This document shows, one piece after another, positions 49,824 through 56,315 of a stretch of 64,000 nucleotides of DNA. The notes beneath the pieces are model-generated. The model did not search any database. It had not been told where the DNA came from and worked only from the letters and a program-made list of their open reading frames with translations. The DNA comes from Acidobacteriota bacterium (GTDB taxonomy: Bacteria; Acidobacteriota; Blastocatellia; UBA7656). The position numbers and the translations under genes were made by a program. The stretch is from positions 1 through 64,000 of the forward strand of contig JBFMDH010000027.1 of NCBI GenBank assembly GCA_040754075.1, read 5' to 3'. How positions within the stretch are numbered: the stretch's first letter is position 1; each line of letters starts with the position of its first letter.

Positions 49824-52800
49824 TTAACACTCGGAATAGCCGCAGGCATAGCAGGTGTGGCAGCCTTCGCTGCGCACGAAGGTCGAATCGCCGCAACTCG
49901 GACACAAATCGCCGTTTGCGCCCGCCATTGCCTGCTCAATTTTTTCTGTCGGGTCATCTAAAAGCGATTCCACGCCCATCACCGAACCTTGCCCGGCTTC
50001 TTCCGTGCCGGTGGCAACGCCCAGATAATTTTCCGCCAGCGCCTGACCCACGGCGTCCGGCAGCGACAGCACCCGACGTTTGCCAAAGCCATAAGAGCGC
50101 GCGCCGCCAATGCCGGTGATCTGTTTGACGATTTCGCGAACCCGTTCATCGGGCGACACCGGCGATTCGATGCGCAGGACGAGCGACATCAGTCTCCCCA
50201 GAGCTTCCGCCATCGCTTTGATATCGGAACCCGCTTTGCCGATTTCCAGAAAGACCTCAAACGGCTGACTTTCGTCATCGTCGTTCATGGTGATATGCGC
50301 CGTGCCCGAAGGCGTCGCTTTGCTCACCGTGCAACCGCGACGTTTGTAAGGACGCGGGCGAATCTTGGGCTTGGCAGCGTGATCGATTTGCGTAACCATT
50401 TTGATTTCGGGTTGCGTTTCAACGGTTGCAGGGGTTGCGGGCGACTCTGCGACTTCAGCGGATTTTGCTTTCTCTTCTTCTTTCTTGAGATTTAAAACCT
50501 GCACGTCGCGTGAACCATCGCGATAAATCGTGCCGCCTTTGCAGCCGAGTTTATAGAGCAATTCGTAAATTTCGCGAGTCTGGTCAACCGTGTAGTTGTT
50601 TGGCAGGTTGCAGGTCTTCGAGATAGACGAATCCACCCAGCGTTGAATGGCTGCCTGCACTTTGACATGCTCTTCGGGCGCCAGGTCCATCGCGGTGACG
50701 AAATAATCCGGCAACGCTTCATTCGGGTGCGCCGTCTGCCATTCTTCTAAAACTTTGACGCGCTCTTCATGACTGCCGAGTCGCGATTTGCGGAAATAGC
50801 TCCAGAAATAGAAAGGTTCGATCCCCGTCGAAGTCCCGACCATGGTGCCGATGGTATTGTGTGCGACGATGCCATTAGCGACATAGGTGTTGGTATCCGG
50901 CACGCTCAAATCAAAGGTGAACGATTCGCTCAATTGAATGTTTGCCGCAACATCGAAGAATAAACTGCCAGCAAGCAAATACGCCGAAGGCAAGTTGCCA
51001 AGCGCGGGATTGGCGCTTGCCAGACTGCGCCATTTTTCCTGCGTCATGCCGCTCTTAATGGCGCTGGCAATCTCCTGACGAATGGTTGTCGGCAAGCCTG
51101 CGGATTCGTCATAAAGTTTTTTGAGCAAGGCGGCAGGAATCGAATCTGCGCGGCTGCCTCTATCTTCACAAGCATCCAAAAGCGCCTGTTTACGTTGACT
51201 GACGAACCCAACGCTATCACGGAAGCGCAGAACTTCGCTGCTGTTGAGCACGCGAACTTCGTGACGCAGGCTTGCGCCGTAACGACCTGCTTCCGGCTCA
51301 AGGCTTCTGCGTGTCGAGACAATGCCAAGTCCGAGCAAGGCAATTTGCACCTCGCGCGCCAGACGTTCCGAAGCGCTTACGAAAGAGATGACGCCATTTG
51401 AGATGCTGCCATCGCTTTCAAACAACCCGCGCAGAAATGCCGAGACTGTTGCTGCGCCGCCCGCAAGCACGGCTTCGGGAATGTGCGCGTCCAAAGCATT
51501 GGCTTTCGCCAAGCCATTGGCGCGCAGCCATCTGGGAATAAAATAGGACGCCGCCCACACCAACAGGCAATTGCGTTCGGTGTCTTCAACCTTGGCGTCG
51601 AGATTGAAAGTTCTGCCAATGAGTTCCTGCAATCTGCCGACCACATCGGTGTCACGCGCATCAACGGCGATGCCCAATCCGCGCCGCTCTTTTAAATAGC
51701 CGTCGCCGATGTAAAAGCCTAGCAGTTCGGCAAGCTCTGCGGTCAGCATTTCAGGCAAACGCAACGTTGAACGACGCTTCCTGGTTGAAACCGCTGCAAG
51801 CGTTGGCACCTCAGCGCGCCCTAACCCGCCGCGCGCCATTACCAGAACATCGCCCGGTTGCACTTCGCCCATCTGTTTCCATTCGTAGTTGCCCTCGCAG
51901 TCAATTACCCGAACCCGATGTTGCAAAGTTGCCGCAAGGTTGAACCCTCTTGCCGTCGCGATTTCAACAACCTCCTGATAGCCGTTCACATAAAACTTAT
52001 TGACCGCTTTCGCGCCGGTATCGGAATGCGTGGTCAAGGCAATATCTTGCCATTGTTCGCCGTCCGCGTCGCCAAGCGTAGCGATGGGGCGCAATCCGCC
52101 ATCTGCAAAAACCAGCGTGTCAGGAGTCACGCAACCATTGGGCGCTTGCGTCAGCAGCGTCACATTGCGCATACCTTTTTCGCGCACCATCTGGCGAATG
52201 TCTTCGGGCATGCGCTGCATATAACCGGACTGCAAAAACTTCTCGGCATCAAACATCGGGAACGCGCCTTTTTCGGCGGCAATGTCAGCCGATGCTTTAT
52301 AAGAATTGCTGGCGATGAAACGATAGAGCCGTTCGATGAATTCCGTCGATTCGTCCGAACCATAACGAATGCCCAGGCGAATGAGCATCTCGGCAAGCCC
52401 CATCGTATTTAAGCCGACGCGACGTTCGGCATTTTGTTGTTTGTAATTTTCATCAAAGAAATAGGGCGTCGCGTCAATGACGTTATCAAGGAAGCGCACC
52501 GCGTAACGCACCGCTTTACCGAGGTCGTCCCATTGCACTTCGCCATCCTGAACGAATTTCGATAAATTAATCGCGCCGAGATTGCAGACCCCGAACCCTG
52601 GCAAAGGTTGCTCGCCGCACGGGTTGGTGCATCCCAGATAACCTGAATCGTAATACCACGAATTTGAATCTTTGTTGGCGCGTTCGATGAAAAAGACGCC
52701 GGGTTCTGCCGATGCCCAGGCGGATTGAATAATGGTGTCCCAAATTTCACGGGCTTTGACGGTTTTATAGGTGATGACATTTCTGCCCATCGCCTGCCAT

Positions 52801-55800
52801 TTATCGAGATTGCCGTCCCAGACCTCTTCATAATCGTCATAAGAGGTATCGGGGAAAACCAAATCCCAATCGGCATCGGCATGAACCGCATCCATGAATT
52901 TATCGGTAATCCCGACCGAGATATTGGCATTGTTGATTTTGCCCATGTCGCGTTTGGCATTGATGAATTCAAACACATCCGGGTGCCAGCAATTCAAAAT
53001 CAACATCAACGCGCCCCTGCGACTATTATGCGTAACCATGCCGTTGGCAAGATAGGTGTGGTTGTCATCAACTTCGATGTCAAGCGTAAGCTGCCGCCCG
53101 GCTTTTTGCACTGCCTTAACATAGACAAACCAAGTGTCGTTTATCGGCGGCGCATTTTCGGCAAACGCTTGGTGCCTATGATAAAGATTGGCATAAGCCG
53201 ACAGCGTCAGATTGCGGTCGCCGCGCGTGTAGCGCTGAAGTTTTCGTCTGAGCGCCTGGTCGGTCGCCTTAATCCGCTTGCCGGCTGCCTGATGGTCAAT
53301 TTGCGGCAACGCCTTTGCTGCGAGCACCGGCTCAAGCCAATAATTTGCCTCGGGCAGTTTATAGCTGGTCTCTCTATTGGTGTCTGGAGCGAAGCTTAAA
53401 CAGGTGGCAAAACGTGAACGCGCATCACAACCGATATTCGCCTGCCAACTTTCCAATCCTTTGAACGAATTGATTCTCAATCGCCACAGCGGTTTGTCGC
53501 CGTAATGATTTGCGCCCATTGGCTGAGGCTCAATTTTTACCGGGCATCCTAAACCGATTAACAGCGTCGCTACCTCATCAATCAAGCGTTTGGAGGTTGA
53601 GGTCAACATCGGATAGTGATGCGAGACGCTGCCATCAGCTTCAAATAGACCGCGTAAATAGGCGCTGACGACTGATGGCGGACTTTGACGGATGAGGCGC
53701 GGTACGCTGACTTCTGCGCTTTTGGCTTTATTGAATCCGTTGCTGGTCAAAAATTCTTTGACGGCGCGATTGCTGATGACATAAATCAACGACGCATCAT
53801 TTTCTTTCTGTTGAACGCGAACTTGCGCGCCCTTGAATAGCCGCTCGATGAGCATAGGCATTTCATCAATCAAATAGCTGTCGTGCGATACGGCGACGCC
53901 TAAACGCCAATCTCCTTTACGTTGCGTCATAAAGCCGTCGCCCGCGAAATAACCTAAAAAGAAGGCGAGTTCTTCATCCAGCGTTTCCGGGAATTCAACC
54001 GGGTCTTGATTGTGATGGTGATATTCGGGTTTGCGTAATCTTTGCAGGGTTCCCTGATGTTGTCCGAGTGTAACCATCATCGCATCGCCGGGTTTGAGTT
54101 CATCAACCCGCCGCCACACAGCGCCACTATCGGTCATTACTTTGACTTTATGATTTGGCGTTCCGGTAAGTGAAAGCCCGGCGTCCGTTTTGATGGTTAA
54201 AACATCCGCTATGCCATTATTGAATGCCTGACGTGATAGACGTTCACCTTCGTCGGTCATCATAATGAGGTCGTGTTCACGCCAACCTTGCTCTTGATGG
54301 GTGACAATTTCATCAAGCCGCAACAACCCTTTTTCAGTAAAGACCAACGACTCCGGCGTGAGACAACCCCCCTGTTCGATCAGTCCGGTAACGAATGAAT
54401 AGAGTCCGCCCCACGAAACCGAACCCGACGAACGACCGTTGACGCCTTTCACATAAGAATGGCGCGGGCGCAAACTGCTGACATTGATGCCGACGCCGCC
54501 GCCACGCGACATGATTTCCATCATCTGCGAGAGCGTTTCAACGATGCCGCGCCGCGAATCCCTCGGGGACGGCACCACATAACAATTGCTTACGACTATC
54601 CCTGCCGAAACAAACGAATGGTCTTCCTCGACCTCCAGATCAAGAACCGCTCCTGAATAATCTTCGACGGCAATTTCCGCGATTCGCGCCCAACGAAGCC
54701 CATCGTGTTCAAAATAATATTTCAAATCTATTTCGGCTGTCGGCGCTTGCTTACCGAAAAAGTCTTTGAACAAATCGGCGCATTCATTGGCGGTTGCCTG
54801 TAGTCTGTATGCCGGTCGTTTGCCCAATCGGTGAGTGTTCTCTTTAATCGAAAAGAAATAACCCAAACGCATCAACAATTGATGTACCTGCGTCGCTAAT
54901 GTGCGATTGGAAAGCAAAATGCCAAGCTTGTTATCTGAGGTGTATCCATCCGCCGTAAACAACCCTTTCAACAATTCGAGGGTCAACTCATCAGGCATTC
55001 GCAGCAGATGACTGGGTATGCGTTTACCATAGCTGTAACTTCCCAGAAAGGCTTTGAAAAATTGCCCTAAAGGCATTGAGTTTGCCCACAGGTCGAGCCA
55101 GCGTTCGGTACTGCTCATCTTGATGGCAGTTGGTACGCCGAATTTGTCTTCAATGATGCGAGCAAGGCGTTCGGCATCCTCTCGCTCATCAAGCCCGAAA
55201 ACGATTTTAATACCCGAAGGAATGTCGGTCTTGGTGCGATGCGTCACGCAACCATCGCCCAACCAACGTCCAAATAAGAAGCATAAGTCGCGGTCAACAA
55301 TCAATCGGTTATTGAGCGCATATTTAGTTCCGCCTTCTTCCAGATAACCGTGATAATCACTGCGCGCTTGTGGCTTAAACAGTTTGCCGTCACTGACCTG
55401 ATAGCCTGAAATATATTCCGAGATGATGATTGCTTGAACCGGCGCTTGCTCGGCGTCATAAGCCGCAGCAATAAAATCATTGGGCTTTAATTCTTTGGCA
55501 GGAATCCACTCGGCTGGTTGTTGAAGCTTTAATCCATCACGGCTTCTGTGGGTGTTTACCCATTCGGATTTGATGGCAAGTATTTTATGTTCGCCGGTGA
55601 CGCGAAGGTCATCATAGCCGAGTTTCTTTGCCTTAATGATATACATTGGCTCTGCGGTTTCGCGCTCAAATTTATGCAGAACTTTTCGCAGACGATTGCG
55701 ATGCGTGACCACATAATCGCCGACATTTACCTCGGCAATCGGTTGGTATCCGTTGGCTGTCAATATCTCTTGCTCAGGCGGCATACAATTATAAAATGTG

Positions 55801-56315
55801 AGCTGTTGGTCGGTGCCGGCGGCGGTCAGGATGCGACCGGCGGGAACGAATTTCCAACCGTTCAACAGCCAGCGGAAGCGTTCATACCAGGCATCGGCTT
55901 GCGCGCCTTCGATGGCGGCAATGCCGCGGGCGACGCGCTCCATCATCTGTTCGGGAGCGGTCTCTATCGGCTTTGAGATATGTTCGGTCAAACGCTCGAC
56001 GATGGTGCCATCCTTTAATTCGACATGGACTTTGCCGACGCCGCCGCTTGCCAGCGGGTCATATTCGACAATGGTGCCGATTTCCCGCTGCCCGGTTTTG
56101 TCATCGACGCAAACAATCACTAAATCGCCAATCGCCAGGGTGCGTTTTTTGGCGTCTTTGACCGCATAACGATCAAGAAAAATCTTTTGCCCGAGTTCGT
56201 TGAGGATATTGATGCCCACGCTTTCGCTCGAATGCGCGGTCTCAGCATCCGGCGCGAATCCCTCTTCCACTTTGCCATTGGTTTTTTGAATTTCGCCGAT
56301 AGTTCCGGTAGCCAT
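49824..56315 (-). CDS. nrdJ: Adenosylcobalamin-dependent (class II) ribonucleotide reductase with three inteins
   Basis: A 2163-residue precursor; removing the three inteins (residues 177-577, 651-1097, 1395-1820) leaves about 889 residues, the normal NrdJ size. The enzyme reduces ribonucleotides to deoxyribonucleotides using a B12-generated thiyl radical. Extein motifs are YN/CYVV (first redox Cys578), the finger loop NPCGEQPLP (Asn1231, Cys1233, Glu1235), and QAPNG/TIGTMVGTSTG, the phosphate-binding motif. A TSCPD-like region comes near residues 1980-2070, and the C-terminal zinc/redox tail CPSCGDSTFVRSEGCHTC ends CYACGYSEC. Residues about 55-115 are an insertion relative to standard NrdJ. 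AAAGGAG precedes the ATG. Confidence 0.95.
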   Translation of the reverse strand: MATGTIGEIQKTNGKVEEGFAPDAETAHSSESVGINILNELGQKIFLDRYAVKDAKKRTLAIGDLVIVCVDDKTGQREIGTIVEYDPLASGGVGKVHVELKDGTIVERLTEHISKPIETAPEQMMERVARGIAAIEGAQADAWYERFRWLLNGWKFVPAGRILTAAGTDQQLTFYNCMPPEQEILTANGYQPIAEVNVGDYVVTHRNRLRKVLHKFERETAEPMYIIKAKKLGYDDLRVTGEHKILAIKSEWVNTHRSRDGLKLQQPAEWIPAKELKPNDFIAAAYDAEQAPVQAIIISEYISGYQVSDGKLFKPQARSDYHGYLEEGGTKYALNNRLIVDRDLCFLFGRWLGDGCVTHRTKTDIPSGIKIVFGLDEREDAERLARIIEDKFGVPTAIKMSSTERWLDLWANSMPLGQFFKAFLGSYSYGKRIPSHLLRMPDELTLELLKGLFTADGYTSDNKLGILLSNRTLATQVHQLLMRLGYFFSIKENTHRLGKRPAYRLQATANECADLFKDFFGKQAPTAEIDLKYYFEHDGLRWARIAEIAVEDYSGAVLDLEVEEDHSFVSAGIVVSNCYVVPSPRDSRRGIVETLSQMMEIMSRGGGVGINVSSLRPRHSYVKGVNGRSSGSVSWGGLYSFVTGLIEQGGCLTPESLVFTEKGLLRLDEIVTHQEQGWREHDLIMMTDEGERLSRQAFNNGIADVLTIKTDAGLSLTGTPNHKVKVMTDSGAVWRRVDELKPGDAMMVTLGQHQGTLQRLRKPEYHHHNQDPVEFPETLDEELAFFLGYFAGDGFMTQRKGDWRLGVAVSHDSYLIDEMPMLIERLFKGAQVRVQQKENDASLIYVISNRAVKEFLTSNGFNKAKSAEVSVPRLIRQSPPSVVSAYLRGLFEADGSVSHHYPMLTSTSKRLIDEVATLLIGLGCPVKIEPQPMGANHYGDKPLWRLRINSFKGLESWQANIGCDARSRFATCLSFAPDTNRETSYKLPEANYWLEPVLAAKALPQIDHQAAGKRIKATDQALRRKLQRYTRGDRNLTLSAYANLYHRHQAFAENAPPINDTWFVYVKAVQKAGRQLTLDIEVDDNHTYLANGMVTHNSRRGALMLILNCWHPDVFEFINAKRDMGKINNANISVGITDKFMDAVHADADWDLVFPDTSYDDYEEVWDGNLDKWQAMGRNVITYKTVKAREIWDTIIQSAWASAEPGVFFIERANKDSNSWYYDSGYLGCTNPCGEQPLPGFGVCNLGAINLSKFVQDGEVQWDDLGKAVRYAVRFLDNVIDATPYFFDENYKQQNAERRVGLNTMGLAEMLIRLGIRYGSDESTEFIERLYRFIASNSYKASADIAAEKGAFPMFDAEKFLQSGYMQRMPEDIRQMVREKGMRNVTLLTQAPNGCVTPDTLVFADGGLRPIATLGDADGEQWQDIALTTHSDTGAKAVNKFYVNGYQEVVEIATARGFNLAATLQHRVRVIDCEGNYEWKQMGEVQPGDVLVMARGGLGRAEVPTLAAVSTRKRRSTLRLPEMLTAELAELLGFYIGDGYLKERRGLGIAVDARDTDVVGRLQELIGRTFNLDAKVEDTERNCLLVWAASYFIPRWLRANGLAKANALDAHIPEAVLAGGAATVSAFLRGLFESDGSISNGVISFVSASERLAREVQIALLGLGIVSTRRSLEPEAGRYGASLRHEVRVLNSSEVLRFRDSVGFVSQRKQALLDACEDRGSRADSIPAALLKKLYDESAGLPTTIRQEIASAIKSGMTQEKWRSLASANPALGNLPSAYLLAGSLFFDVAANIQLSESFTFDLSVPDTNTYVANGIVAHNTIGTMVGTSTGIEPFYFWSYFRKSRLGSHEERVKVLEEWQTAHPNEALPDYFVTAMDLAPEEHVKVQAAIQRWVDSSISKTCNLPNNYTVDQTREIYELLYKLGCKGGTIYRDGSRDVQVLNLKKEEEKAKSAEVAESPATPATVETQPEIKMVTQIDHAAKPKIRPRPYKRRGCTVSKATPSGTAHITMNDDDESQPFEVFLEIGKAGSDIKAMAEALGRLMSLVLRIESPVSPDERVREIVKQITGIGGARSYGFGKRRVLSLPDAVGQALAENYLGVATGTEEAGQGSVMGVESLLDDPTEKIEQAMAGANGDLCPSCGDSTFVRSEGCHTCYACGYSEC
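50856..52133 (-). mobile_element. Intein 3 of NrdJ (426 residues, LAGLIDADG type)
   Basis: Begins at Cys1395 (CVTPDTLVFADGGLRPIATL) and ends at His-Asn1820 (NTYVANGIVAHN), followed by Thr1821. Block B is T1463-L-Q-H1466. Endonuclease motifs are LLGFYIGDG (1531-1539) and FLRGLFESDG (1627-1636). It splits QAPNG/TIGTM, the phosphate-binding motif of all ribonucleotide reductases (APTGTIS in other members). Confidence 0.94.
53025..54365 (-). mobile_element. Intein 2 of NrdJ (447 residues, LAGLIDADG type)
   Basis: Begins at Cys651 (CLTPESLVFTEKGLLRLDEI) and ends at His-Asn1097 (HTYLANGMVTHN), followed by Ser1098. Block B is T719-P-N-H722. Endonuclease motifs are FFLGYFAGDG (785-794) and YLRGLFEADG (886-895). 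It interrupts the conserved EQGG/SRRGALM sequence. It is the longest of the three and has canonical splice residues at both ends. Confidence 0.94.
54585..55787 (-). mobile_element. Intein 1 of NrdJ (401 residues, LAGLIDADG type)
   Basis: Begins at Cys177 (CMPPEQEILTANGYQPIAEV) and ends at Asn577 (HSFVSAGIVVSN), followed by Cys578. Splicing block B is T240-G-E-H243. The homing endonuclease motifs are LFGRWLGDG (about 347-355) and LLKGLFTADG (about 448-457), each with its acidic residue. The penultimate residue is Ser instead of the usual His. It is inserted directly before the first active-site cysteine of the reductase. Confidence 0.92.

What the first reader, a model, noticed from the sequence alone, without database searches (positions are those of the whole stretch)
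49824..56315. Three inteins in one class II ribonucleotide reductase
The continuous 2163-codon frame contains three complete inteins with Cys at position 1, TxxH block B, paired LAGLIDADG motifs with their acidic residues, and Asn at the end. They total 1274 residues, more than the 889-residue reductase itself. Ribonucleotide reductases are known intein hosts, but three full-length inteins with apparently intact endonucleases in one bacterial NrdJ is uncommon. An essential enzyme depends on three splicing reactions.
Basis: partly seen in the sequence, partly recalled or inferred. Interest (0 to 1): 0.8.

Follow-up and report, generated by a model that had tools for sequence, protein, structure and literature searches.

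The report
Three inteins in one ribonucleotide reductase
One bacterial gene for the enzyme that makes DNA building blocks carries three self-removing protein inserts, each with its own DNA-cutting domain; the reading is correct, but the kind is already known, since four inserts have been reported in another bacterium's reductase and a sister genus here also has four.

Summary
The 2163-codon minus-strand frame is a class II reductase (NrdJ) interrupted by three in-frame inteins of 401, 447 and 426 aa. Each passes Pfam's cut-offs for the intein splicing domain and for LAGLIDADG_3. The joined 889-aa exteins align without a gap at all three joints with four intein-free NrdJ of the same family (73-76% identity). 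The catalytic endonuclease aspartates are present in all three. Two splicing positions are non-canonical: Ser instead of the penultimate His in intein 1, and Asn instead of the block F His in intein 3.

Inteins 1 and 2 have counterparts at the same sites in two other genera, in several stages of the homing cycle: intact, dead endonuclease, mini-intein. One of these genera (Chloracidobacterium sp. UBA7656) carries four inteins. Intein 3 sits at a site that was empty in every relative examined. All three intein-2 alleles use an AGT +1 serine codon, while seven empty alleles use TCN, which points to one origin with its flank.

It is a new member of a known kind: Trichodesmium RNR has four inteins. 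'Essential' is qualified, because the genome also carries a class III NrdD-like gene. The genome has about eleven inteins. The best lead lies outside the window: a fractured dnaE with a split intein.

The parts
55788..56315 (-). NrdJ extein 1, residues 1-176, ending ...QLTFYN
   Evidence: aligned to intein-free homologues
54585..55787 (-). Intein 1 (site 176, N|C), 401 aa, CMPPEQ...VVSN; +1 Cys is the residue aligned with T. maritima NrdJ Cys134
   Evidence: Pfam/NCBIfam; counterpart in G003 78% over 401 aa, mini-intein of 168 aa in G001
55251..55277 (-). Intein 1 first LAGLIDADG motif LFGRWLGDG
54945..54971 (-). Intein 1 second LAGLIDADG motif LKGLFTADG
54366..54584 (-). NrdJ extein 2, residues 578-650 (73 aa), ...IEQGG
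53025..54365 (-). Intein 2 (site 249, GG|S), 447 aa, CLTPES...VTHN
   Evidence: Pfam/NCBIfam; counterparts of identical length in G001 (75%) and G003 (72%)
53934..53960 (-). Intein 2 first LAGLIDADG motif FLGYFAGDG
53631..53657 (-). Intein 2 second LAGLIDADG motif LRGLFEADG (EANG in G001)
52134..53024 (-). NrdJ extein 3, residues 1098-1394, holds the TNPCGE motif (thiyl Cys region; empty here, intein site in G003 and others)
50856..52133 (-). Intein 3 (site 546, NG|T), 426 aa, CVTPDT...VAHN; not seen at this site in any relative examined
   Evidence: Pfam/NCBIfam; distribution
51699..51725 (-). Intein 3 first LAGLIDADG motif LLGFYIGDG
51408..51434 (-). Intein 3 second LAGLIDADG motif LRGLFESDG
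49824..50855 (-). NrdJ extein 4 with TSCPD domain and C-terminal Cys-rich tail (CPSCG..CHTCYACGYSEC), stop codon included

Best explanation
The gene makes one 2163-aa precursor from which three independent class 1 (Cys1) inteins excise themselves, leaving an 889-aa adenosylcobalamin-dependent class II reductase. Each intein carries a two-motif LAGLIDADG homing endonuclease that should cut the empty nrdJ allele at its own site and spread by gene conversion. Each site abuts a Cys, Ser or Thr that serves as the +1 nucleophile. Site 176 lies just before the Cys aligned with T. maritima NrdJ Cys134, site 249 in the conserved QGGSRRGA segment, and site 546 in the APNGT segment. Inteins 1 and 2 were present in an ancestor shared by at least three genera, or spread among them early, and have since decayed in one of those genera. 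Intein 3 came separately; it is a distant paralogue of intein 2. Shown by sequence: anatomy, joints, allele distribution, decay states, purifying selection, shared +1 codon. Inferred: splicing, endonuclease activity, homing.
For: Seamless joints against four empty NrdJ at 73-76% identity. All three pass Pfam's intein and LAGLIDADG cut-offs, and the boundary profiles hit the exact termini. Same-site counterparts: site 176 in G003 (401 aa, 78%) and G001 (168-aa mini-intein, endonuclease gone); site 249 in G001 and G003 (447 aa each, no indel), with catalytic D to N in G001. The endonuclease region of intein 2 has dN about 0.21 with dS of 1.6 or saturated, so it is constrained like the splicing part. 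Intein 2 to extein dN ratios are steady at 1.3-1.5 across the three host pairs, which fits long co-residence. The +1 Ser codon is AGT in all three filled alleles and TCN in seven empty ones, including three outgroups. The holders are not rejected as one clade (AU p = 0.37). Four of the six intein sites seen in these NrdJ, including sites 249 and 546, are in the top 2% of conserved positions. Mapping to 1XJE.
Against: No expression, splicing or cleavage data. Intein 1 lacks the penultimate His and intein 3 lacks the block F His; both are tolerated in some inteins (general knowledge) but could slow splicing. Site 176 is only moderately conserved (74th percentile). AlphaFold models of inteins 1 and 3 were poor (pLDDT 43 and 37), so the fold was not tested independently. 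Synonymous sites are saturated, so vertical descent cannot be cleanly separated from early transfer.
Confidence: 0.93

Rival explanations
1. The inteins splice, but their endonucleases are inactive relics kept by chance; mobility ended long ago.
For: Sister genome G001 shows such decay: a mini-intein at site 176 and a D-to-N change in the second LAGLIDADG motif at site 249. Divergence tracks the hosts, so there is no sign of recent transfer.
Against: In the window all six motif aspartates are kept. Intein 2 has the same 447-aa length in three genera and strong purifying selection over the endonuclease region.
Confidence: 0.25
2. One or more inteins have become conditional regulators (redox, temperature or metal sensitive splicing) of dNTP supply rather than mere parasites.
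For: Long retention, insertion at functional positions, unusual His positions that could slow splicing; conditional splicing is reported for mycobacterial DnaB inteins (abstracts of PMC6195587 and PMC7360933, listed).
Against: Four sister genomes live with an intein-free NrdJ, and inteins 1 and 2 are not kept uniformly. Nothing here tests regulation.
Confidence: 0.1
3. The gene is a pseudogene or non-splicing allele, and the cell relies on another reductase.
For: A class III NrdD-like gene exists in the genome, and two catalytic positions of the inteins are non-canonical.
Against: The frame is open over 2163 codons, the exteins are under strong constraint (dN 0.13-0.19 at near-saturated dS), and no other class I/II reductase was found.
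Confidence: 0.04

Closest known systems
[quoted passage not shown] read here only as cited in PMC1635734)
   Same: A bacterial ribonucleotide reductase gene carrying several inteins.
   Different: Four inteins plus introns there; three inteins and an uninterrupted single reading frame here. Site correspondence could not be checked.
RIR1 intein alleles listed by Soucy et al. 2014 (PMC4071816: rir1-b, -g, -k, -l, -m and others)
   Same: Multi-site intein invasion of RNR, including an uncultured Chloroflexi record at rir1-l, -g and -m and Ca. Chloracidobacterium thermophilum at rir1-b.
   Different: The passages read do not give site coordinates that could be mapped to sites 176, 249 and 546, so allele names were not assigned here.
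NrdJ of Chloracidobacterium sp. UBA7656 (G003; loci L039 and L085)
   Same: Same family; counterparts of inteins 1 and 2 at the same sites with intact endonuclease motifs.
   Different: Four inteins (sites 176, 249, 384, 626); lacks intein 3. Its site-384 intein has lost the terminal His-Asn.
PI-PkoII and the V-ATPase inteins 7qsu/7qss (solved LAGLIDADG inteins)
   Same: Sequence matches to the intein and endonuclease parts.
   Different: Distant; other hosts and sites.

Membership tests
Intein (class 1, Cys1) | In-frame insert whose removal restores an uninterrupted conserved host | tested here: met
   no gap at three joints against four empty homologues
Intein (class 1, Cys1) | N-terminal Cys/Ser, block B TxxH, C-terminal Asn, +1 Cys/Ser/Thr | tested here: met
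   termini and +1 residues; TxxH
Intein (class 1, Cys1) | Block F His and penultimate His | tested here: inconclusive
   intein 2 has both; intein 1 lacks the penultimate His (Ser); intein 3 lacks the block F His (Asn). Each keeps at least one of the two.
Intein (class 1, Cys1) | Match to intein profiles above curated cut-off | tested here: met
   46.8, 50.4, 45.9 bits against 35.8
Intein (class 1, Cys1) | Self-excision and extein ligation | not testable with these tools
   needs expression
LAGLIDADG homing endonuclease (in-intein) | Two LAGLIDADG motifs with acidic residues | tested here: met
LAGLIDADG homing endonuclease (in-intein) | Cleavage of the empty allele | not testable with these tools
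   empty sites differ from the window's flank at 9-15 of 48 nt; activity unknown
Class II RNR (NrdJ) | NrdJ profile above cut-off, active-site cysteines, TSCPD and C-terminal Cys tail | tested here: met
   TIGR02504 528 bits against 400; aligned to 1XJE; Cys134 and Cys322 positions kept
Class II RNR (NrdJ) | Works with adenosylcobalamin and without a radical-generating NrdB subunit | not tested
   NrdB was not searched for in the genome; cofactor use needs an enzyme assay

The most novel reading that the evidence does not exclude
Intein 3 marks a previously unnamed RNR insertion site (APNG|T), and the AGT-versus-TCN serine switch at site 249 records an ancient homing event with co-conversion, so this family would offer a datable intein invasion with intact, dead and mini states side by side in one gene.
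Probability: 0.3. Interest if true: 0.45.

Novelty: new member of a known kind. Interest (0 to 1): 0.35.

Why it matters
One gene family shows, within one bacterial family, empty sites, full inteins, an intein with a mutated endonuclease motif and a mini-intein, plus a codon signature at the joint that separates filled from empty lineages. That makes it a good natural series for testing the homing cycle and how several inteins coexist in one gene; neighbouring inteins are reported to hinder each other's co-homing (PMC10643990). It does not change what is known about inteins as such.

Tried and rejected
AlphaFold models of inteins 1 and 3: mean pLDDT 43 and 37, too poor for a fold search. Phage sources: only distant (about 22-26%) intein relatives in phage helicases, RecA and terminases, two distant viral contigs for intein 2 and none for intein 3, so no phage donor was found. 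Recent transfer of inteins 1 and 2: rejected, because intein divergence is as large as host divergence. Repeated precise loss in the four intein-free sister genomes: less likely, because they form one clade (96/96) and share the TCN codon with outgroups. The phylum search for the dnaE free-standing endonuclease was empty, but the two genomes known to carry it gave no match, so they were evidently not in the sample and the result shows nothing. RNA families and tRNAs: none in the window.

Full report
WHAT IS THERE. The minus-strand frame 49824-56315 encodes 2163 aa. Pfam finds the ribonucleotide reductase N and barrel domains and a TSCPD domain, interrupted by three intein splicing/LAGLIDADG segments. 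NCBIfam calls the host an adenosylcobalamin-dependent reductase, NrdJ_Z, 528 bits against a cut-off of 400. Cutting at the Cys...Asn boundaries gives inteins of 401, 447 and 426 aa and an 889-aa product. The product aligns end to end, with no gap at any joint, to four intein-free NrdJ of the same family at 73-76% identity.

INTEIN ANATOMY. Each segment passes Pfam's Intein_splicing and LAGLIDADG_3 thresholds, and NCBIfam's C-terminal splicing profile ends exactly on each last residue. Block B is TGEH, TPNH and TLQH; the six LAGLIDADG motifs all keep the Asp. Two points depart from the textbook. Intein 1 ends VVSN, with Ser in place of the penultimate His, and so do its counterparts in G001 and G003 (VVSN, VLSN). 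Intein 3 has Asn where the block F His stands. Each of these two therefore has one of the two C-terminal histidines; intein 2 has both. Inteins 2 and 3 are related (27% over the full length), intein 1 only distantly.

WHERE THEY SIT. The joined sequence maps onto T. maritima NrdJ 1XJE. Site 176 is directly before the Cys aligned with Cys134, which serves as the +1 nucleophile. Site 249 lies in QGG|SRRGA, which corresponds to the QGSRRRGA segment, and site 546 in APNG|T. From general knowledge of RNR structures these are the redox cysteine, the specificity loop 2 region and the phosphate-binding segment. Sites 249 and 546 are in the top 2% of conserved positions; site 176 is at the 74th percentile. 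This fits the published rule that inteins favour conserved sites (PMC2814812).

RELATIVES. Of 58 related genomes, 57 have a match to the NrdJ profile, and several of those are interrupted. G002, G004, G005 and G006 have none. Other families have inteins at 176, 207 and 384. Site 546 was filled only in the window among those examined; in a 396-genome sample of the phylum, the intein 3 hits whose hosts were read were intein 2-type NrdJ or other proteins, and several weaker hits were not followed up.

HISTORY. Intein 1 of the window and of G003 are both 401 aa (78%); G001 holds a 168-aa mini-intein with the endonuclease gone. Intein 2 is 447 aa in all three without an indel, and in G001 the second motif reads EANG, so one catalytic Asp is lost. 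The endonuclease region of intein 2 is under purifying selection (dN about 0.21, dS 1.6 or saturated), and intein 2 to host dN ratios are steady at 1.3-1.5, which speaks for long co-residence rather than recent transfer. The four intein-free genomes form one clade (96/96); the three holders are not rejected as a clade (AU p = 0.37). The serine right after intein 2 is AGT in all three filled alleles and TCG in the four empty sisters; three outgroup NrdJ have TCC, TCG and TCT. A TCN-to-AGT switch needs two changes, so the simplest reading is one origin of the filled allele together with its flank, and an intein-free clade that never had it. GC3 of the inteins (0.49-0.59) is below that of the exteins (0.62) in the window, most for intein 1.

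HOW IT WORKS. Most likely, three autocatalytic class 1 splicing reactions give the mature reductase, and each intein's endonuclease can convert empty alleles. Splicing and cutting are inferred from anatomy; no activity was measured. The statement that an essential enzyme depends on this needs a qualifier: no other class I/II reductase was found in the genome, but a class III NrdD-like gene with a 705-aa open frame is present.

COMPARISON. Several inteins in one RNR are known: four in Trichodesmium (Liu 2003, cited in PMC1635734), an uncultured Chloroflexi record at rir1-l, -g and -m and Ca. Chloracidobacterium thermophilum at rir1-b (PMC4071816). Multi-intein genes are common in Thermococcales and Halobacteriales (PMC10643990, Table 1). 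This is therefore a new member of a known kind. Whether site 546 is a new allele could not be settled here.

THE WIDER GENOME. The organism is intein-rich: besides NrdJ, inteins lie in DnaB, SMC, GyrA, GyrB, PrkA, SpoVR and a Ro60-like vWA protein, and a split one in DnaE, about eleven in nine hosts. The dnaE case deserves its own study. In G001 and G003 the gene is broken into DnaE-N with the N-intein, a 270-aa free-standing LAGLIDADG ORF overlapping it by 38-44 nt, and the C-intein with DnaE-C starting in an ATGA overlap. In the window's genome the middle ORF is cut down to 22 codons with both overlaps kept. In G013 another ORF fills the gap, in G009 the frame is continuous, and in genus g16 the halves are unlinked (1.44 Mb apart in G021). 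The title phrase 'Fractured genes' with split inteins is cited in the literature, but that paper was not read, and no paper on such dnaE genes in Acidobacteriota was found.

Noticed in passing
Own genome G000:C9:206718-207311 (L078), with G001 L107, G003 L108, G013 L109, G009 L110, G021 L111/L112: Split dnaE intein (site FNR|C...N|SHS). G001 and G003 carry a 270-aa free-standing LAGLIDADG ORF between the halves, overlapping the N-intein by 38-44 nt and the C-intein by ATGA; G000 keeps only a 22-codon remnant MPRTAWNKRLTPEIEERITRYL with both overlaps. G013 has another ORF in the gap, G009 a continuous frame, genus g16 unlinked halves (1.44 Mb apart in G021). Looks like stages in the evolution of a split DnaE intein outside cyanobacteria.
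   Followed up: partly
L055 (G009), L056 (G013), L057 (G040): class I NrdA: A 378-aa intein-like insert with Cys1 and terminal Asn is followed by Gly at +1 (VNQ|C...N|GGKRKG), confirmed against five intein-free NrdA; conserved at 63-66% in three genera. Canonical splicing needs Cys, Ser or Thr there.
   Followed up: partly
L039 (G003) site 384; L072 (G167) site 384: Site-384 inteins, inserted before the thiyl-radical Cys, have lost the usual terminal His-Asn: VVNMG|CGE in G003 and ISLD|CGE in G167; splicing there is in doubt.
   Followed up: no
G000:C42:15706-21452 (L075): Nearby genes prkA (serine protein kinase) and spoVR, on the same strand about 1.2 kb apart, each carry a full LAGLIDADG intein.
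   Followed up: no
G000:C3:328710-330059 (L074): An intein interrupts a Ro60-like vWA protein at LLVDK|C...N|SGSM, which looks like the metal-binding DxSGS motif.
   Followed up: no
G000:C4:175812-177344 (GyrA, L079) and G000:C3:173916-175166 (GyrB, L080): Both gyrase subunits carry inteins whose central part has no Pfam LAGLIDADG match and looks like an HNH-type domain with repeats.
   Followed up: no
window site 249 joint, 54366/53025: The +1 Ser codon is AGT in the three filled alleles and TCN in seven empty ones.
   Followed up: yes
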